Assembly (NCBI GenBank): GCA_003137075.1
Contig: PLES01000091.1
Location: 1-45,689, forward strand
Source: Solirubrobacterales bacterium
GTDB lineage: Bacteria; Actinomycetota; Thermoleophilia; Solirubrobacterales; Solirubrobacteraceae
Reading direction: 5' to 3'
DNA length: 45,689 nucleotides
The notes beneath the pieces were generated by a model that saw only the letters and a list, made by a program, of their open reading frames with translations, had not been told where the DNA came from and made no database searches. Shown here piece after piece: positions 7,875 to 15,956 of this stretch. A program made the position numbers and the translations under genes. Numbering within the stretch: the first letter of the stretch is position 1; each line of letters begins with the position of its first letter.

Positions 7875-8849
7875 ATGAGCACCACCAACGCGCCCGCCGG
7901 TGCGTCCGCTCAGGCGGCTGTCCACTCCGGTGAGTCGCGGCGGACGCGGGCATTCCACGCCTACTTCTTTTCTGACGGCGTTCGCACCGCCCAGACCTTG
8001 CTCGGGTTGATCTGGTTACTGGACGGCGGCCTGCAATTTCAGTCGTTCATGTACTCGCGTGGCTTCATCGACATGATCACCGGCACGGGGTTAGGGCAGC
8101 CCGGATGGCTCGCTTCGAGCATCGACTGGGGCGCGCGCATCGCCGGCAATAACCTCAGCCTGTGGAACACGCTGTTCGCGCTCACGCAGGTCGTGATCGG
8201 GCTCGGGTTGCTGTACCGCCCGGCGGTCAAGCACGCGCTGCTGCTCAGCTTCGGCTGGGCACTGTTCGTCTGGTGGTTCGGAGAGGGGCTTGGAATGCTG
8301 TTTATGAACACCGCCCAGCCACTCACAGGCGCACCTGGTTGCGTCGTCTACCTGCTGGTCGGCTTGATCATCTGGCCCAACGGCAAGCCTGGCGGACTGC
8401 TTGGCATCCGTGGCACGCGTGTGATGTGGGCGTCGCTCTGGCTGCTGATGGCCTGCCTCTGGCTGCTTCAGTTCTCCAGTAGCGCCAATGCGATCCACGA
8501 CACGATCAACGCGGCCCCGTCGGGCATGAGCTGGTTGTCGAGTCTGCAGGACGGCGCCGCCAGTGTGACCAAGGGCAACGGCCTGATCTTCGCGCTGATC
8601 TTCGCGGCGCTCTCAGCTGTGATCGGCATCGGTGTCGGCTTCAACCGCTACGCCAAACAGCTGCTGATCCTGGCGGCGGCGATCAGCGTGCTGTACTGGC
8701 TCGTTGGGCAGGGCTTCGGCGGGATATTCCAGGGCGGCGCCACCGACCCGAATACCGCGCCGCTGTTCGTGCTGATGGCCTTCGTCATCTACCAGTTGGT
8801 CCCATACGAGCTGCAAACGACTCTCAGGACGGAGCCCAGACCCGCATGA
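7875..8849 (+). CDS. 8-TM membrane protein with two DoxX-like repeats
   Basis: 324 residues; about eight hydrophobic segments follow a 35-residue cytoplasmic N-terminus. The protein is an internal duplication. Residues about 38-175 and 190-315 both show W-L-L...LQF, a soluble loop ending in GN-L, a helix with IG-G followed by R-AK/VK, then W..GEGLGMLF or W..GQGFGGIF, and a terminal helix. The four-helix unit resembles DoxX/DoxD-like membrane proteins, but I do not recognise the whole protein. Its stop overlaps the start of the P19-like lipoprotein gene by 4 nt (ATGA), so it belongs to that cassette. Possible roles are metal permease or quinone/heme-linked electron carrier for the extracytoplasmic partners. 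This is inference. Confidence 0.72.
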   Translation: MSTTNAPAGASAQAAVHSGESRRTRAFHAYFFSDGVRTAQTLLGLIWLLDGGLQFQSFMYSRGFIDMITGTGLGQPGWLASSIDWGARIAGNNLSLWNTLFALTQVVIGLGLLYRPAVKHALLLSFGWALFVWWFGEGLGMLFMNTAQPLTGAPGCVVYLLVGLIIWPNGKPGGLLGIRGTRVMWASLWLLMACLWLLQFSSSANAIHDTINAAPSGMSWLSSLQDGAASVTKGNGLIFALIFAALSAVIGIGVGFNRYAKQLLILAAAISVLYWLVGQGFGGIFQGGATDPNTAPLFVLMAFVIYQLVPYELQTTLRTEPRPA

Positions 8850-9505
8850 AATCTCGCCTTACCTGCCTGCGCCCGCTCCCGTTCCTGCTCGTGACCTTGC
8901 TGCTGGCCGGTTGCGCGAGCGCCGATAAGAGTCAGCCGGCCACCACGGCGTCGATGCACGCCAAGTCGTCGACGACCGCAATGACCTCCGGTATGCAGAT
9001 GGACATGGGCAGCACAACCGTGGGCGATGACAACCCACCGACCGTGAACGGCGTCAAACCAGTCGCGTCGCAGTTGCTCGCAACCAGCGAGTGGCAGGGA
9101 CTAGAGATCGAGGCGCGGACGATGACTCCGGCCCCGTACGTGATGGTCTCGGACAGCGCCGGCGCGATCAAGGAAACGACGGTGAAGCCGCCGAAGGGCA
9201 CGAGCTTTCACCTGATGATCATGCTCAACGACGAGCACACGCAAGAGCCGGTCCCCTATGCAAGCGTCTGGGCCTCGATCTCCACCAGCGCCGGCAAACT
9301 GATCTGGTCGGGCAGTCAGCTGCCGATGATCTCCGCCTACATGGGTCCGCATTACGGCAGCAACGTGAGCCTGCCTGGCCCCGGCCGCTACAAGCTGAAG
9401 CTGTTGATCAGCCCGCCGCTCGGCGCGCGTCACATTGAATACGCACACGTCTGGCTGTCAACGCACACGGTCGACGAGAGCTTCACCTGGAACCCAAAGT
9501 CGTGA
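8846..9505 (+). CDS. P19-like (FetP/Tp34 family) metal-binding lipoprotein
   Basis: 219 residues. The lipobox LLLAGC (Cys about residue 23) predicts a lipid-anchored protein on the outer face of the membrane. A Met-rich stretch (SGMQMDMGS) follows. The domain at about 75-215 matches the periplasmic iron-transport P19 fold: TPAPYVMVSD, FHLMIMLNDEHTQEPVPYAS and MGPHYGSNVSLPGPGRYKLK. In characterised P19 proteins Met, His and Glu side chains bind copper and iron, and the protein works with a permease in ferrous or ferric uptake. The gene is translationally coupled on both sides (ATGA with the membrane protein, GTGA with the DyP-like gene), so all three products are likely made together. Confidence 0.82.
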   Translation: MKSRLTCLRPLPFLLVTLLLAGCASADKSQPATTASMHAKSSTTAMTSGMQMDMGSTTVGDDNPPTVNGVKPVASQLLATSEWQGLEIEARTMTPAPYVMVSDSAGAIKETTVKPPKGTSFHLMIMLNDEHTQEPVPYASVWASISTSAGKLIWSGSQLPMISAYMGPHYGSNVSLPGPGRYKLKLLISPPLGARHIEYAHVWLSTHTVDESFTWNPKS

Positions 9506-10734
9506 GTGATGGCGGTGGGCTCACACGCCGCCGCTTCCTGATCGGCGCCGGTGCCGTGGCGGCGGCTGGGATCGCCGCAGGAGTCGCGGTTGACACGCGC
9601 AACGCCAGCGGCAACGCCGTACCGCTGGTGTCGCTGCCCGAGCAGCCCACCGGCTTGCCGATCCGCCAGCACGCCTGGGAGCAGACGCTGACGCCGGACG
9701 AATTCGGGAACCCAACGCCTCCGCGCTTCGATCGGCTGCTGCTGTTTGACGTCAGCGGAACGGCGACCCCGAACTCGGCGCGCTTGCTGGAGGCGGCTCT
9801 GCGTGAGCTCGAGCGCAGCTATCCATGGGGCCCCAGTGGTCTGCTCTTCACTGCGGGCTGGAGCCCTGACTACTTCGAGCGTGTCCTGCGCATCAGCGCT
9901 CCGATCCCGAGGGCCAAAGCACTTTCGGACTTCGAGTCGCCGGCGATCGACAGCTACCACCTCTGCCTGCATTTGGCCTGCGACGACGAGGACCGCCTGG
10001 AGGCGGTCGCCCAAGGACTGATCTCGAAGCTTGCGCCCGCGTTGCGCTGGCGCGAAACACGGACCGGCTTTACCGGCGCCGGCTTGCCAGCCGCTCACCA
10101 GCGGGTGAGCGGCGTTCCCTCAGGCGATCCGGTCACCCGAGCCTCGCCTCTGTTCATGGGTTTCAAGTCAGCGCTTAAGAAGAACCAGGCGAGTGAGGAG
10201 GCGGTGACGATCAGCGGCGGTCGCTTTGATCAAGGCACGACGATGGTCGTGAGTCAGATGCAGTTGACGCTTGACAGCTGGTACCGGGACCTTTCCTACA
10301 GACAGCGGGTGGCGCTGATGTACTCACCGCAGACGACCCCGGCTCAGGTCGCAAAGTTCACCACCGACGCCGAGTCGAATCCGGGGCAGCTGAGCCAAGC
10401 GATCCGCAAGTACGGCTTGATCGGCCACGCCCAGGCGTCTGCGCGCGCGCGTGTCAACGGCAAGCCTGTGATCCTGCGGCGCGACTTCGACACGGTTGAT
10501 GGCGGCGTTGCCGGGCTGCACTTTGTCGCTCTCCAGCGAAGCATCGCGGACTTCGTAGCGACCCGCACCGCGATGAACCAGTCAGGCGCACAGCTCGTCA
10601 ACCCCGCGATCACGGATACCGTCAACAACGGCATCAACGCCTTCATCTTCGTCCAGCGCCGGGCCAACTACATCGTGCCGTCGCGTTCCGATCGCTCGTT
10701 CCCGTTGCTGCCGGGGCGCGAAGCGGCGCTCTGA
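9502..10734 (+). CDS. Tat-exported DyP-fold protein lacking the GxxDG aspartate
   Basis: 410 residues with a GTG start overlapping the preceding stop. The Tat signal is LTRRRFLIGAG plus a hydrophobic stretch. The body follows the EfeB/DyP peroxidase layout: LLFTAGWSPDYF, DSYHLCLHLACDD, a candidate heme-ligand H309 in IGHAQAS, then VILRRDF and LHFVALQRSIADF. Where DyP enzymes have GF-K-D-G this protein has GFKSA (220-224), so the catalytic Asp is Ser. I recall similar Tat proteins next to P19-like genes in haloarchaea (a DUF7405-type family), but cannot confirm it. It may bind heme or metal rather than act as a normal peroxidase. EfeB-type partners of iron transporters are the nearest functional analogue. 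Confidence 0.72.
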   Translation: MSDGGGLTRRRFLIGAGAVAAAGIAAGVAVDTRNASGNAVPLVSLPEQPTGLPIRQHAWEQTLTPDEFGNPTPPRFDRLLLFDVSGTATPNSARLLEAALRELERSYPWGPSGLLFTAGWSPDYFERVLRISAPIPRAKALSDFESPAIDSYHLCLHLACDDEDRLEAVAQGLISKLAPALRWRETRTGFTGAGLPAAHQRVSGVPSGDPVTRASPLFMGFKSALKKNQASEEAVTISGGRFDQGTTMVVSQMQLTLDSWYRDLSYRQRVALMYSPQTTPAQVAKFTTDAESNPGQLSQAIRKYGLIGHAQASARARVNGKPVILRRDFDTVDGGVAGLHFVALQRSIADFVATRTAMNQSGAQLVNPAITDTVNNGINAFIFVQRRANYIVPSRSDRSFPLLPGREAAL

Positions 10735-10756: not shown

Positions 10757-13270
10757 ATGACCCGAAGCCGTCGATTCCAAGGGGACATGGTGCACCAAGC
10801 GGAAACGATCATGATCGGTGAGCCCGATCTTGCGGATGCGCTCGGCGACGCCGTCATCTGCACCTCGGTCAACGGCACGATCACCGCTTTCAATCCAGCT
10901 GCCGAGCAGCTCTACGGCTACGCCGCCGCCGACGTTGTCGGCCGGAGCGTGGAAATGCTGGTGCCGCAGCTCAGCGCCGAGCAGGTTTCCGGACTGATCG
11001 CACGCGTCTGCGAAGGCGATTTGCGGCACATCGAAGAGGCCGTAACTCGTGCAGACGGCAGCGTTGTCGACGTTTCGGTAACGGCCACTGCGCTCTACGG
11101 ACCCGACGGCGAGGTCGCGGGCATCGTCACCACGAGGCGCGACATCTCCCGGGAGAAGGAGCGCGAACGCCGCTTCGGAAGCTCGATGCGGCTGCTCGAG
11201 CAGACGGACATCGTGGCGATGATCGTCACCGGCGCCCGTGGGATCATCACCACCTTCAACCCGGGTGCGGAGAAGATGCTCGGCTACACCGCGCAAGAGA
11301 TTGTGGGCCGGGAAACCCCAGCCCTGTTCCACGACCACGACGAGGTTGAGGCTCGCGTCGTAGCGTGGGGGGGGGGGTCGCATGCCGAACTTTTTCAGGC
11401 GCTTGCCGCCGGCGAGGTACGTGAGCCGGAGTGGCGCTTCCGGCGCAAGGACGGCCGCTGGATCACGGTGGTGTTGACGATCAGGGCGCTCTACAACGAC
11501 GATGGCGAGCGCGAGGGTCATGCGGCCCTGCTTCGCGACGTCACCGAGGTCCGCGAAGCCGAGCTAGCCCGCCAGCGCGCCGAGGAGCGTTTCCGGATCG
11601 CCTTCGAGCACGCGCCGATCGGCCTCGCGATCACGGGACTGACAGGCGATGACCGCGGACGCTTTCTGAACACCAACCCCGAGCTGGCACGGATGGTCGG
11701 GCGCGGGCCTGGAGAGCTCGACGGCGTCCCGATCGAGGCGATCACCTACGCAGACGACCGCGCGTACAGTCAGCAACTGCTCGGTCAGGTCGGCTTCGGC
11801 ACGGTCTCAGCCGAGAAGCGATATGTGCATATGGACGGCACGCCGTTCTGGGTTCTGGTGACTTCGACACCGGTGCCGCGGCTCGATGGCGGTCCGCCCG
11901 ACTACTGTGTCGCGCAGATCGTCGACATCTCCGAGCGGCGCCGCTTTGAGGCACAGCTGCACTACCTGGCCGATCACGATCCGCTGACCGGCCTGCACAA
12001 CCGTCGCGCCTTTGAGGCGGAACTCGAGCGCGTCGTCGAGCAGAGCCGGGAGAGCGGCAGTTGCGGCGCTCTGCTGGCGCTGGACCTCGACGGTTTCAAG
12101 GTCGTCAACGACCGCTTCGGGCACGCCGTCGGGGATGAGCTGGTGGCTCAGATCGGCGGCCTGCTGAGGCAGAGCGTCAGGGAGACCGACTTCGTTTCCC
12201 GGATCGGCGGTGACGAGTTCGCGATCATCCTTCATGACTGCGGCACGGCTGAGGCGATCGCGACTTCCGAGAAGGTGCTCGATGCGGTCCGCACGCGCGG
12301 CACCGTCGTCACGCAGCAGGCGACAGCTCATGTGACCACCTCGGTCGGGATCGCCGTCTACGGGCCCGGCTCCGACACCTCTGGCGCTGAGCTCGCCGTC
12401 GAAGCGGACATCGCCATGTACGACGCCAAGGCGGAAGGGCGCAACGGCTTCGCGGTCTACGCGCCGGACGGCCGCAGTCGCGTCGAGCTGACCCAGCGCG
12501 ACTCGTGGTTCTCGCGCCTGCGCCGTGCGCTCGACGATGATCGCTTCGGGCTGTACGCGCAGCGGATCGTGCCGATCAGTGGCGCCGGTCTAGACCGCTA
12601 CGAGCTGTTGTTGCGTCTGCGCGATGACGCCGGCGAGCTGGTGCCGCCGGGCGCTTTCATCTTCAACGCCGAGCGCTTTGATCTGATTGGCGAGATCGAC
12701 CGCTGGGTACTTGGCCAGGCCATCCGGCTGCTGAACATGCACCACGCGGTCGGAAACGACTTCAGCCTGTCGGTCAATCTCTCCGGCCACACGATGAACG
12801 ACCTCAGCCTCGCCAGCGACCTGGCCGAGCTGCTGAAACGGCACCCAATTCCACCGGGACGGCTGGTTGTCGAGGTCACCGAGACTGCCGCGATCGTCAA
12901 CATGGAGCGGGCTCGCGAGCTTGCCCAGGAGCTGCGCAAGCTCGGCTGCCTGTTCGCCCTGGATGACTTCGGCGCCGGCTTCGCCTCGTTCTACTACCTC
13001 AAGCATCTGGAGTTCGACTACCTCAAGATCGACGGCGAGTTCATCACCAAGCTCGTCAGCACCGAGGTTGACCGCCTGGTCGTGCGGGCGGTAGTCGATA
13101 TCGCCCGCGGGCTCGGCACCCAGACGGTCGCCGAATTCGTCGGTGACGACGAGACCGTGGTGCTGTTGCGCGAGCTCGGAGTCGACTACGCCCAGGGTTA
13201 CCACCTGGGGATGCCGGCCGCCGTGAACGGGATCTTGCCGCCGCTTCCCGGTCTATTGCCGGGTTCTTAG
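10757..13270 (+). CDS. PAS-PAS-PAS-GGDEF-EAL c-di-GMP turnover protein
   Basis: 837 residues, cytoplasmic. Three PAS folds (about 20-135, 145-270 and 280-395) are followed by a GGDEF domain with intact RIGGDEF (484-488) and an EAL domain (about 580-830). The EAL landmarks are YELLLRL, SVNLSG, EVTETA, LDDFGAGFAS, LKIDGEF, AEFVGDDE and AQGYHLG. Both diguanylate cyclase and phosphodiesterase activities look possible. An AAGGA ribosome site lies just before the ATG. Residues 204-207 are encoded across a run of 11 G's (11367-11377). A slip by one base in either direction stops the frame at 11422-11424 or 11475-11477, removing everything after the second PAS. The EAL half is similar in style to the 688-2295 protein. 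Confidence 0.9.
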   Translation: MTRSRRFQGDMVHQAETIMIGEPDLADALGDAVICTSVNGTITAFNPAAEQLYGYAAADVVGRSVEMLVPQLSAEQVSGLIARVCEGDLRHIEEAVTRADGSVVDVSVTATALYGPDGEVAGIVTTRRDISREKERERRFGSSMRLLEQTDIVAMIVTGARGIITTFNPGAEKMLGYTAQEIVGRETPALFHDHDEVEARVVAWGGGSHAELFQALAAGEVREPEWRFRRKDGRWITVVLTIRALYNDDGEREGHAALLRDVTEVREAELARQRAEERFRIAFEHAPIGLAITGLTGDDRGRFLNTNPELARMVGRGPGELDGVPIEAITYADDRAYSQQLLGQVGFGTVSAEKRYVHMDGTPFWVLVTSTPVPRLDGGPPDYCVAQIVDISERRRFEAQLHYLADHDPLTGLHNRRAFEAELERVVEQSRESGSCGALLALDLDGFKVVNDRFGHAVGDELVAQIGGLLRQSVRETDFVSRIGGDEFAIILHDCGTAEAIATSEKVLDAVRTRGTVVTQQATAHVTTSVGIAVYGPGSDTSGAELAVEADIAMYDAKAEGRNGFAVYAPDGRSRVELTQRDSWFSRLRRALDDDRFGLYAQRIVPISGAGLDRYELLLRLRDDAGELVPPGAFIFNAERFDLIGEIDRWVLGQAIRLLNMHHAVGNDFSLSVNLSGHTMNDLSLASDLAELLKRHPIPPGRLVVEVTETAAIVNMERARELAQELRKLGCLFALDDFGAGFASFYYLKHLEFDYLKIDGEFITKLVSTEVDRLVVRAVVDIARGLGTQTVAEFVGDDETVVLLRELGVDYAQGYHLGMPAAVNGILPPLPGLLPGS
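11367..11377 (+). repeat. G11 homopolymer inside PAS-GGDEF-EAL gene
   Basis: Eleven consecutive G's encode the end of a Trp codon, three Gly codons and a following G-free Ser codon. It is the longest homopolymer I noticed in the window and lies in the second PAS domain. Such tracts are slippage-prone in replication and also error-prone in sequencing. Confidence 0.9.
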
Positions 13271-13295
13271 GTTAATCGTCGAAACTAAGGGCCTC

Positions 13296-15956
13296 ATGCT
13301 CTCGCGTCTGCTCCGCGACCTCCGCGGCGGCCCGCTGGCCGCCGCTACAGCGCTTGTCCTTCTGGCCCTACCGGCCGCCTCAGCCTCGGCCCACGAGGTG
13401 CGGCTCGGGTCGGGCGCGGTGCTTCCGGCCGGCGCGACGCTGGTAGCGTCAGACGCTTCGGTGCGCTCACTCGAGATCACGATCACACTCGAGCCGAGAG
13501 ATCCCGCAGCGCTCAGCTCATACGCGGACGGCGTCAGCTCCCCCGGGGACAGCGACTTCCGTCACTTCCTGACGACCGCGGAGTTCCGCCGGCGCTTCGC
13601 CCCGACCCGCGCGACCGTGCGTGCGGTCGACCACTCGCTGCGGGCGCATGGCTTGAAGCCGGGCCGGCTCGATGCCAGCGGGCTGGCGTTCACCGTCAGG
13701 GCCAGCAGCGGCGCGATAGAGCGGGCTTTCAAGCTGACGCTTTCAGAGGCAAGGCTCAAAGGCGGACGTGACGCGATCTTCAACCTTCAGGCGCCGGCGC
13801 TGGACGCGCGGATCGCCGGGCACGTCCAGGCGGTGCTCGGCCTGAGCACGCTCTACCCGATGCAGGACACGGTCGAGCGTCAGTCCTCGAACCCGATCCT
13901 CGACGCCCACGCCAGTAGCGCAAGCGCCAAGGCGCGGGTCGACACCGGTGGACCGCAGCCCTGCTCTCAGGCGGTGGATGACGCCCCAGGCTCCGGCGGC
14001 TATACCGCAGACCAGATCGCGTCCTACTACGACTTCTCGCCGCTCTACCAGGCGGGGGACAAGGGCCAGGGCGTCACCATGGCTGTTTACGAGCTCGAGT
14101 CCGACGATCCAAACGACATCGCCGCCTACGAGAAGTGTTACGGGATCCACACTCAGATCACCTACGTCAAGGTCGACGGCGGCTCTGGCTCGGGGGCCGG
14201 GTCCGGTGAGGCGGCGCTCGATATCGACCAGATCGTTGGGCTTGCCCCGAAGGTGCATCTGCTCGTCTACCAGGGTCCAAACTCCAACAACGGCAGCGGC
14301 CCTTACAACACCTACGCGGCGATTGCTGACCAGGACGCCGCATCGGTGATCTCGACCTCATGGGGCAACTGCGAGCCCGAGGAGACGTTGTCCGAGGCGC
14401 AATCCGAGGCGACGATCTTTGAGCAGATGGCCGTGCAGGGCCAGACGCTCGTTGCGGCCGCTGGCGACTCCGGGTCGGAGGACTGCTGGATCGGCGGCGC
14501 CGGCGGCAACAGCAACAACAGCGTTCAGGTCGACGATCCGGCCAGCCAGCCGTTCGTGACCGCTGTCGGCGGTACCTCACTCGAGCTTGGTGTCTTCAAC
14601 CTCGGCGGTAATGGCAACCAGACCTACCCGGTCGCCAACCCCGCTGAGACCGTCTGGAACAACAGCTACCCGGGTCTGCAGTACGCGGCAACGTGGGGAA
14701 TCGCGCCGGGCGCGGGCGGTGGCGGAATCTCCTCCTTCTGGCCGATGCCGGCGTATCAATCGAGCGCCGCCACCGCGGCGCCGTGGCTCAACGTCGAGAA
14801 CTCGGAGTCGTCGGGTGCCAACTGTGGCGCCGCCGCCGGAACCGACTGTCGCGAAGTCCCCGATGTCTCCGCCGACGCTGATCCGATGGACGGCTACATG
14901 ACCTATTGGAACGGCTCGGGCCACGCTGGCGACAGCGCCCTCAGCGGCTGGCAGAGCATCGGCGGAACCAGCGCTTCGACGCCCCTTTGGGCTACGGTGT
15001 TCGCCCTGGCAGAGGCCTCGCGCGCCTGTGACGGCAACCTCATCGGTTTCGCAAATCCCGGGCTCTACGCACTCGCGAGCTCCTCGCTGACGGCTTACTC
15101 CAGCTACTTCAACGATGTGACGAACAACGCGATCAACGCCGCCGGTGACGACAACGAGCTCTCCGCCAGCGGCAACACCAGCGGGCTCTATCAGGCCGGT
15201 GCCGGGTACGACATGGCTACCGGGCTCGGTACGCCCAAAGCCGCGAACCTCGCACCGGCGCTCTGCCATGAGGCGCTTCAGGTTCAGGCGGCCGGCGTGA
15301 AGCAGAGCTTCCTCGGCTCGGGCGTCACCGTAAAGGTATCGGCCTCGCTGCCAGCCGGCCAGAGCGGCACCGTGAGCTACACCGCCAAGCACCTGCCGGC
15401 CGGGCTCAGCATCGACTCGACCACAGGTGTGATCAGCGGCAAGATAAGCAAGGCAGGCGTCTACGACACCGTCTTTGGGGCGAGCGTGAGTGGCGGCGAC
15501 GTCGGTGCGCGCAGCTACGTGTGGACGGTCGCCAATCGCCCCGGCGCTTCAAAGCTGAGTCTCGCGGACACACGCTCCGGTCGGCCGCTGCTGGCGTTCA
15601 CGGTCAGCGCCGGCCAGAACGAGTCGGCCCTCAAGAGCGTTCTGGTGAAGCTTCCGGCAGGCGTGACGCTGCGTCGACCGGTGCGCGGCATCACGGTGAC
15701 CGGTGCTGCTGGCAACAACGTCCCGCACCGTTTCTTGGTGAGTGGGGGCAACCTGCTGATCACCTTCACGCAGGCTCACTCACCCGACAAGATCGTCTTC
15801 ACAACCGGCGCGCTGGCTTCGAGTGGAAGGCTCCTGGGGGGCAGCGTCAGGTCGGTCAAGCTCGTGCTTCATGTGGTCGACGGTGACGGCGCCTCGAGCA
15901 CCGTGCGGCGCACGATCCAGGCTACCGAGCCGGCAACCGGCAAGACTGCTCGGTAG
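13296..15956 (+). CDS. Secreted S53 (sedolisin/kumamolisin) serine-carboxyl peptidase
   Basis: 886 residues. Signal peptide about 1-32 (ASASA-HE). An activation prodomain spans about 45-200 (typical GDSDFRHFLTTAEFRRRFAP). The catalytic domain spans about 240-660 with E305 and D309 in GSGEAALDID, oxyanion Asp D391 in AAAGDSG, and nucleophile S559 in GGTSASTPLWA. The Ca-site region is near DMATGLGTP. The remaining 220 residues are beta-rich: a putative-Ig-like segment (LPAGLSIDSTTGVISG) and an unassigned C-terminal domain. The enzyme should be secreted and self-activate at acidic pH to digest proteins. It precedes a peptidase T gene with a 30-nt gap; extracellular proteolysis followed by cytosolic tripeptide breakdown would be a sensible pairing. 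Confidence 0.92.
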   Translation: MLSRLLRDLRGGPLAAATALVLLALPAASASAHEVRLGSGAVLPAGATLVASDASVRSLEITITLEPRDPAALSSYADGVSSPGDSDFRHFLTTAEFRRRFAPTRATVRAVDHSLRAHGLKPGRLDASGLAFTVRASSGAIERAFKLTLSEARLKGGRDAIFNLQAPALDARIAGHVQAVLGLSTLYPMQDTVERQSSNPILDAHASSASAKARVDTGGPQPCSQAVDDAPGSGGYTADQIASYYDFSPLYQAGDKGQGVTMAVYELESDDPNDIAAYEKCYGIHTQITYVKVDGGSGSGAGSGEAALDIDQIVGLAPKVHLLVYQGPNSNNGSGPYNTYAAIADQDAASVISTSWGNCEPEETLSEAQSEATIFEQMAVQGQTLVAAAGDSGSEDCWIGGAGGNSNNSVQVDDPASQPFVTAVGGTSLELGVFNLGGNGNQTYPVANPAETVWNNSYPGLQYAATWGIAPGAGGGGISSFWPMPAYQSSAATAAPWLNVENSESSGANCGAAAGTDCREVPDVSADADPMDGYMTYWNGSGHAGDSALSGWQSIGGTSASTPLWATVFALAEASRACDGNLIGFANPGLYALASSSLTAYSSYFNDVTNNAINAAGDDNELSASGNTSGLYQAGAGYDMATGLGTPKAANLAPALCHEALQVQAAGVKQSFLGSGVTVKVSASLPAGQSGTVSYTAKHLPAGLSIDSTTGVISGKISKAGVYDTVFGASVSGGDVGARSYVWTVANRPGASKLSLADTRSGRPLLAFTVSAGQNESALKSVLVKLPAGVTLRRPVRGITVTGAAGNNVPHRFLVSGGNLLITFTQAHSPDKIVFTTGALASSGRLLGGSVRSVKLVLHVVDGDGASSTVRRTIQATEPATGKTAR
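15922..15956 (+). terminator. Inverted repeat overlapping the S53 protease stop codon
   Basis: Nine-base arms CTACCGAGC and GCTCGGTAG enclose 17 nt, and the second arm contains the TAG stop. It could be a weak terminator or a message-stabilising hairpin. No T-tract follows. Confidence 0.3.

What the first reader, a model, noticed from the sequence alone, without database searches (positions are those of the whole stretch)
7875..10734. Three-gene extracytoplasmic metal/heme cassette: duplicated membrane protein, P19-like lipoprotein, DyP-like Tat protein
All three genes overlap (ATGA and GTGA), so they form a strict translational unit. The parts recall Fe uptake systems (FetMP, EfeUOB), but the permease is not FTR1-like and the DyP-like member lacks the catalytic Asp. 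This combination looks like a distinct iron or copper handling or redox system and is the strongest candidate for an undescribed one in the window.
Basis: partly seen in the sequence, partly recalled or inferred. Interest (0 to 1): 0.75.

Follow-up and report, generated by a model that had tools for sequence, protein, structure and literature searches.

The report
Copper-leaning metal-and-haem gene trio
Three overlapping genes of a soil-type actinobacterium encode a membrane protein, a metal-binding lipoprotein and an exported haem-type protein; two of the three also sit side by side in salt-loving archaea, and the clues point to copper handling rather than ordinary iron uptake.

Summary
In detail: three genes (7875-8849, 8846-9505, 9502-10734 +) overlap by ATGA and GTGA. 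G1 is an internally duplicated membrane protein without Pfam, NCBIfam or PDB sequence match; G2 is a P19/FtrA-type lipoprotein; G3 is DUF7405, modelled (pLDDT 90) with the dye-decolorising-peroxidase fold, keeping proximal His and distal Arg but with Ser for the catalytic Asp. The link is real: P19 lies within 5 kb of DUF7405 in 59 of 80 scanned loci, bacterial and archaeal; in 14 genomes chosen from these, 13 of 21 PF10634 matches do (0.08 expected). G1-G2-G3 recurs in five other loci. But the trio is modular: G3 also stands alone and other membrane proteins take G1's slot. The metal is probably copper: the P19s have H-x-M (67 of 70) where nine comparators and FtrA have H-x-E, linkers are Met/His-rich, and 11 of 22 G1-family loci carry SCO1/SenC, CtaG, cytochrome-oxidase or metal-ATPase genes. 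Best reading: an extracytoplasmic copper-handling redox module without an FTR1 permease. Function is inferred; the window itself shows no such copper gene among 14 other ORFs scanned, and my literature searches found no description.

The parts
7875..8849 (+). G1: integral membrane protein, 324 aa, two homologous halves; no known family
   Evidence: no Pfam, NCBIfam or PDB sequence match; duplication; AF2 model only pLDDT 55
7974..8390 (+). G1 repeat 1 (residues 34-172)
   Evidence: profile comparison of the halves
8406..8819 (+). G1 repeat 2 (residues 178-315)
8846..8849 (+). ATGA overlap G1/G2
8846..9505 (+). G2: P19/FtrA-type lipoprotein, 219 aa, PF10634
8912..8914 (+). Cys23 of the lipobox (invariant in 17 aligned relatives)
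9209..9217 (+). His122-x-Met124, where FtrA and nine comparator P19-type proteins have H-x-E
9326..9352 (+). Met161 ... Met166-Gly-Pro-His169: PM and MG-x-HYG motif of the putative copper site
9502..9505 (+). GTGA overlap G2/G3
9502..10734 (+). G3: DUF7405 (PF24152), Tat-type N terminus, DyP fold, 410 aa
10168..10170 (+). Ser223, in the place of the catalytic Asp of the DyP GXXDG motif
10426..10428 (+). His309, equivalent of the proximal haem His (37 of 37)
10477..10482 (+). Arg326-Arg327; Arg326 (37 of 37) or Arg327 (29 of 37) is the likely distal Arg

Best explanation
An extracytoplasmic copper-handling and redox module. The membrane-anchored P19-type lipoprotein (G2) binds copper in a His/Met site; DUF7405 (G3), folded and loaded with haem in the cytoplasm and exported by Tat, changes the redox state of that copper or protects it from peroxide; the duplicated membrane protein (G1) is the membrane partner that takes up copper, hands it on, or couples to the respiratory chain, probably towards haem-copper oxidase maturation. 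Shown by computation: gene structure, predicted fold of G3, conserved residues, co-occurrence, the company of relatives. Inferred: that copper is the metal, that haem is bound, the order of the steps, and transport or delivery by G1.
For: P19 + DUF7405: 59 of 80 scan loci within 5 kb; 13 of 21 PF10634 matches in 14 genomes against 0.076 expected. Metal site: 67 of 70 P19 genes of the cluster have H-x-M, 0 of 70 H-x-E, 64 of 70 a Met just before G-x-H[YF]G; 9 of 9 other P19-type proteins read from Actinobacteriota (9 of the 13 other genomes hit) and FtrA in the PDB have H-x-E. P19's likely iron site is an acidic patch with Glu44, Asp46, Asp92 (passage of PMC9174327); at the places I match to these, none of 17 aligned members is acidic. 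Linkers near the lipid Cys hold 10.8% Met+His against 3.7% background (56 of 517 residues in 11 bacterial members; sequences are related and two linkers include some signal-peptide residues, so the p-value is only a guide). G1 relatives: C-terminal SCO1/SenC fusion in G530, G408, G515, G523; a separate SCO1/SenC gene beside G1-P19-DUF7405 in L039/L071, L065, L068; CtaG, COX1 or COX2 in G384, G530, G523, G408, G515; in G139 and G194 (same genus as the window) a P-type ATPase over the TIGR01511 copper cut-off (it also passes the cadmium model, with fewer bits), DUF5134, G1 and CtaG, split over two contigs in G194; an HMA-type ATPase of unknown metal in G266. Together 11 of 22 G1-family loci. G3: 47 of the 50 Foldseek rows shown carry a DyP or Dtp name (best 5de0, E 1.9e-16, TM 0.57/0.76).
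Against: No SCO1, CtaG, oxidase or copper ATPase among the 14 other window ORFs scanned (the rest of the window was not scanned), so the copper link rests on relatives. H-x-M marks a whole subfamily: haloarchaeal P19s 12 kb to 1.8 Mb from DUF7405 have it too (6 of 6 that reach the motif). At the Asp46 and Asp92 places most comparators are not acidic either (9 of 9 and 8 of 9), so the Glu alone separates the groups. Haloarchaeal members lack the third His of the bacterial ones in that domain. Patulibacter-type loci pair P19 + DUF7405 with PepSY_TM, which I recall mainly from iron-siderophore reduction; three Natrinema loci put DUF7405 beside a Dps-type gene without P19. G1's fold is unknown; in 11 of 22 G1 loci no copper gene was found, though not every neighbour there was scanned. 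The second G1-P19 pair of this genome lies beside a NicO nickel-type transporter.
Confidence: 0.5

Rival explanations
1. An iron-uptake system working like FetMP or EfeUOB: P19 binds ferrous iron, DUF7405 oxidises it as EfeB is thought to, and G1 replaces FTR1 as the permease.
For: Family names and homology: PF10634, FtrA/P19; profile match of DUF7405 to EfeB, 97.9%, and to deferrochelatases; PepSY_TM partner in Patulibacter-type loci; a copper site is said to be required for iron transport by P19 and FetP (title of reference 12 in PMC10783030), so a His/Met site does not exclude iron.
Against: Glu of H-x-E replaced by Met in the subfamily; no FTR1 match and no REXXE in G1; the FTR1 matches of this genome lie on other contigs; G1 relatives keep copper and oxidase company.
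Confidence: 0.25
2. A haem or peroxide protection module: DUF7405 traffics or senses haem or slowly removes peroxide outside the membrane, and P19 keeps redox metal away.
For: DyP fold with proximal His and distal Arg; DUF7405 stands without P19 in 21 of 80 scan loci, some of them at contig ends, and in the 14 fetched loci of the divergent group; Dps-type gene beside it in Natrinema.
Against: Loss of the distal Asp in the B-class enzyme KpDyP lowered Compound I formation from 6.2e6 to 1.9e3 per M per s (PMC6153280 section 6), so efficient peroxide turnover is unlikely; the tight link with P19 is not explained.
Confidence: 0.15
3. Neighbours without a common function, kept together by descent.
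For: In G163 a locus that looks syntenic with the window (judged by eye) has DUF7405 but not G1-P19 (L044).
Against: P19 and DUF7405 adjoin in bacteria and archaea with different gene order (P19 first in Solirubrobacterales, DUF7405 first in most haloarchaea), with over 100 times the chance number of pairs in the 14 genomes tested.
Confidence: 0.05

Closest known systems
P19/FetP/FtrA family (FetMP, P19-cFtr1, FtrABCD)
   Same: Homologous extracytoplasmic domain, PM and G-x-HYG motif of the copper site
   Different: H-x-E is H-x-M; no FTR1 permease; partnered with DUF7405 and G1
EfeUOB (EfeB, a class A DyP)
   Same: Tat-exported DyP-fold protein in a metal operon; His and Arg of the haem pocket kept
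   Different: Catalytic Asp is Ser; P19 instead of EfeO; no EfeU/FTR1 in the trio
SCO1/SenC - CtaG - PCuAC copper delivery to cytochrome c oxidase
   Same: G1 relatives fused to SCO1 or next to CtaG and oxidase genes; a His/Met motif comparable in kind to PCuAC's (PMC8267372 passages)
   Different: No SCO1, CtaG or oxidase among the window ORFs scanned; G2 is a P19-type protein, not PCuAC; G3 has no counterpart there

Membership tests
P19 / Iron_transport (PF10634) | Match over the curated cut-off | tested here: met
   39.1 bits against 21
P19 / Iron_transport (PF10634) | Copper-site residues of P19 (His42, Met88, His95, His132: list and numbers recalled, from no call) | tested here: met
   His122, Met161, His169, His194 align with the H, M, H, H of FtrA 8vv5; the last His is absent from that domain in the 6 haloarchaeal rows
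P19 / Iron_transport (PF10634) | Acidic patch that holds iron/Mn (Glu44, Asp46, Asp92; PMC9174327 passages; matched to the motifs by spacing) | tested here: not met
   0 of 17 acidic at these places; 0 of 70 H-x-E
FetMP / EfeUOB / FtrABCD | FTR1-type permease with REXXE | tested here: not met
   FTR1 matches of the genome are on C89 and C47
EfeUOB | EfeO (M75/cupredoxin) component | tested here: not met
   None of the 17 window ORFs scanned with Pfam is one; the others were not scanned
DyP-type peroxidase superfamily | Fold | tested here: met
   Predicted structure and Foldseek; sequence profile
DyP-type peroxidase superfamily | Proximal His and distal Arg | tested here: met
   His309 and Arg326, 37 of 37, by sequence-profile alignment; not checked on coordinates
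DyP-type peroxidase superfamily | Catalytic Asp of GXXDG | tested here: not met
   Ser in 35, Ala 1, Thr 1 of 37
DyP-type peroxidase superfamily | Haem binding and peroxidase activity | not testable with these tools
   needs purified protein
DoxX/DoxD membrane proteins (for G1) | Profile similarity | tested here: inconclusive
   Profile comparison with 7 DoxX rows 0.5% and 0.1%, no better than shuffles; one distant G1 relative hits DoxX at E 1.4e-3, below cut-off
Copper delivery to haem-copper oxidases | Linked SCO1, CtaG, oxidase or copper-ATPase genes | tested here: inconclusive
   None among 14 other window ORFs scanned; present in 11 of 22 G1-family loci

The most novel reading that the evidence does not exclude
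A cross-domain copper acquisition and oxidation system in which a DyP-fold haem protein that has given up its catalytic Asp works as a copper (not dye, not iron) redox enzyme for a P19 that has turned from iron to copper, with interchangeable membrane partners feeding haem-copper oxidase assembly.
Probability: 0.25. Interest if true: 0.75.

Novelty: new variant of a known kind. Interest (0 to 1): 0.55.

Why it matters
Two families without a described function (DUF7405 and the G1 family) get a shared, testable role; P19 proteins named 'iron transport' would include a copper branch in bacteria and haloarchaea; and a DyP-fold protein without the catalytic Asp, conserved across two domains of life, asks what this fold does when it is not a good peroxidase. 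Haloferax volcanii, a laboratory organism, holds both PF24152 and PF10634 (controls), so the question can be tested at once.

Tried and rejected
DoxX membership of G1: a weak Pfam hit of one distant relative was not borne out by profile comparison with a small DoxX set; the first attempt picked wrong reading frames and was discarded. Structure of G1: model pLDDT 55 with six sequences, not used for any fold search. VIA-align library not available. Promoter and terminator scan uninformative: 0 promoter-like sites, 1 terminator-like site against a mean of 1.9 in shuffles. NCBIfam gave no name over a cut-off for the three genes.

Literature: no paper in the held library names DUF7405, DUF7350, DUF7471, PF24152 or PF24041. 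Searches joining DyP, haloarchaea, iron and P19 (24 papers, 15 listed) and haloarchaea, iron uptake, Dyp-type peroxidase and Tat (6 papers) were seen as listings with the starts of abstracts only, and none of these speaks of the trio; joining SCO1, DoxX, PepSY, P19 and Solirubrobacter gave none. Papers opened: passages only of PMC6083913, PMC9174327, PMC10783030, PMC7611857, PMC11966278; abstract and passages of PMC8267372; abstract and section 6 of PMC6153280. Most subscription papers are not in that library.

Caveats on counts. The P19 profile was seeded with four haloarchaeal genes found beside DUF7405; the PF10634 count does not share that bias but is less sensitive and uses 14 genomes chosen from the hits. 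The 80 loci are the best of 220 and include near relatives; L039/L071 and L046/L066 are the same genomes, and the 70 P19 genes include such copies. Five loci (L099, L102, L107, L108, L129) show no map because the gene caller missed DUF7405, but they are counted, which used stop-to-stop frames. The 22 G1-family loci include one doubtful match (G434, E 2e-4) and count the two contigs of G194 as one; Pfam was run on chosen neighbours only, and no chance expectation was computed for the 11 of 22. Of the 13 other genomes with PF10634, nine were fetched.
Full report
What is there. The three genes lie at 7875-8849, 8846-9505 and 9502-10734 on the + strand and overlap by ATGA and GTGA. The window belongs to a genome of 3.86 Mb in 181 contigs. 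A genome of the same genus (G160) is one contig of 3,636,119 bases, the same length as Conexibacter sp. DBS9H8 (L066), which gives the likely genus.

G1 has no match in Pfam, NCBIfam or PDB sequences. Its two halves are homologous: 93.4% probability with six sequences against at most 2.5% in 30 shuffles, 98.0% and E 1.8e-13 with distant relatives added. It has no REXXE motif; among its invariant residues in six sequences are four Met, one Glu and one Asp, and no His or Cys. A link to DoxX was tested and not shown. Its model is too weak to use (pLDDT 55).

G2 is a lipoprotein of the P19/FtrA family (PF10634). G3 is DUF7405. Its predicted structure (pLDDT 90, pTM 0.87) finds DyP-type peroxidases: 47 of the 50 Foldseek rows shown carry a DyP or Dtp name, the other three being 9az0 (a peroxidase), 2iiz (TyrA, the protein of 2hag, which is called dyp-type) and 7ylo (not named in its title); TM-scores are 0.51-0.58 by query length. 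The family profile gives 21 PDB chains with E below 0.01, most of them named deferrochelatase, DyP or peroxidase, and matches E. coli EfeB at 97.9%. In that alignment His309 falls on the proximal His, Arg326/327 on the distal Arg and Ser223 on the catalytic Asp. Over 37 relatives His309 and Arg326 never vary and position 223 is Ser in 35, Ala in 1, Thr in 1.

Co-occurrence. A scan of genome contigs found 220 DUF7405 relatives and kept 80. P19 lies within 5 kb in 59 of the 80: 6 of 14 in the actinobacterial group (Solirubrobacterales and other bins, one titled Chlamydiae), 3 of 5 in Patulibacter, 0 of 1 in Streptomyces, 50 of 60 in archaea (haloarchaea, with two loci of an unplaced euryarchaeal bin); several misses lie at contig ends. 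In 14 genomes taken from these loci (chosen, not random) 13 of 21 PF10634 matches are within 5 kb of DUF7405, with 0.076 expected. Of 199 genomes drawn from the window's class 30 have DUF7405, in a strong and a divergent group; none of the 14 fetched loci of the divergent group has P19 nearby. In a quick tree of 37 rows the haloarchaea and the divergent group are each one side of a fully supported branch, the other bacteria are not resolved as one group, and the G1-P19 loci lie in one branch of moderate support (93) with two solo copies among them.

The membrane slot varies. Upstream of P19-DUF7405 there is G1 in the window and in L066 (= G160), L071 (= G121), L065, L068 and L069; PepSY_TM in L040/L084, L041/L098, L043 and L048 (Pfam run on one of them; the rest by clustering); and an unnamed membrane family shared with haloarchaea in L070. 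Many haloarchaea add a winged-helix regulator and a small membrane protein (31 and 26 of 112 loci; one member of each tested: HVO_0163-type HTH and DUF7471). In G163, of the same genus, a locus that looks syntenic with the window has DUF7405 but neither G1 nor P19, while G1-P19-DUF5134 stand on another contig. So G1-P19 and P19-DUF7405 are two pairings that meet in the trio.

Why copper. (1) FtrA and nine other P19-type proteins have H-x-E. The Glu is, by spacing, Glu44, named among the residues of the acidic patch that holds the iron analogue about 7 A from the copper site (PMC9174327, passages). In the P19s found here it is Met: 67 of 70 H-x-M and 0 of 70 H-x-E; a second Met stands just before G-x-H[YF]G in 64 of 70. 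(2) The linkers near the lipid Cys are Met/His-rich, 10.8% against 3.7%. (3) Relatives of G1 are fused to SCO1/SenC in four genomes; SCO1/SenC genes stand beside the trio in three loci; CtaG, COX1 or COX2 stand beside G1 relatives in five genomes. In two genomes of the window's own genus, in which neither P19 nor DUF7405 was found, a G1 relative lies between CtaG and DUF5134 plus a P-type ATPase over the copper-model cut-off (485 and 484 bits against 397; the cadmium model's cut-off is passed too, with 387 and 374 bits); in G194 this is split over two contigs. An HMA-type ATPase of unknown metal is next to the weak G1 relative of G266. That makes 11 of 22 G1-family loci. NrfD and 4Fe-4S neighbours in G399 and G418 add a respiratory setting.

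What speaks against. None of the 14 other window ORFs scanned is such a copper gene (the rest of the window was not scanned). A copper site is said to be required for iron transport by P19 and FetP (a reference title seen), so copper binding does not rule out iron. H-x-M marks a whole subfamily, near DUF7405 or not (6 of 6), and at the other two acid places most comparators lack the acid as well. PepSY_TM and Dps-type neighbours fit iron too. The second G1-P19 pair of this genome has a P19 broken in frame, with His and Met of the site lost, beside DUF5134 and NicO.

Mechanism. In the B-class enzyme KpDyP removing the distal Asp cut Compound I formation about three thousand-fold (PMC6153280, abstract and section 6). 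A family that has Ser there almost throughout is therefore unlikely to be an efficient peroxidase; proximal His plus distal Arg without Asp resembles the pocket described for chlorite dismutases (PMC7611857, passages). I think it most likely that G3 carries out slow or donor-specific redox chemistry on the metal held by G2, by analogy with the ferrous-oxidase ideas for FtrA and FtrB (PMC11966278, passages), here on copper; and that G1 hands on or takes in the metal at the membrane. These steps are inferred.

Verdict. A real, conserved association that my searches did not find described, built from known folds and one unnamed membrane family: a new variant of the P19-type extracytoplasmic metal systems, leaning to copper, with an unusual DyP-fold partner.

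Noticed in passing
G000:C18:978-2673 (L165): A second G1 followed by a P19 gene broken in frame (or misread) that has lost the His and Met of the metal site, then DUF5134 and a NicO transporter.
   Followed up: partly
G000:C54:16934-17923 - (L037): A second DUF7405 of the same genome, alone; it groups with another solo copy inside the G1-P19 branch of the tree.
   Followed up: partly
L068: A record titled Chlamydiae bacterium carries G1-P19-DUF7405 close to the Solirubrobacterales versions; probably a mis-binned contig.
   Followed up: no
L050-L063: A divergent DUF7405 group in other families of the class; 10 of its loci hold a small Cys-containing exported protein, several have transporter genes that look branched-chain-type by eye; no P19 in the 14 loci fetched.
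   Followed up: partly
L032, L033, L035, L070, L085, L086, L089, L091, L092, L110, L123, L124: A membrane family of up to about 490 aa, no Pfam match in three members tested, near DUF7405 in haloarchaea and in the G1 slot of one bacterial locus (L070).
   Followed up: no
L036, L122, L135: In Natrinema DUF7405 lies beside a gene annotated (L036) as DNA protection protein DPS, with no P19, hinting at iron or peroxide.
   Followed up: no
L166, L174: G1 relatives next to NrfD and 4Fe-4S proteins, a possible respiratory complex.
   Followed up: partly
L040, L041, L042, L043, L047, L048, L049, L096: A small exported protein follows DUF7405 in Patulibacter-type loci; weak FixH match below cut-off in one of two members tested.
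   Followed up: no
window 10757-15956: Downstream of the trio: a PAS-GGDEF-EAL protein only 22 bases away, then a pro-kumamolisin-type protein with a putative Ig domain.
   Followed up: no
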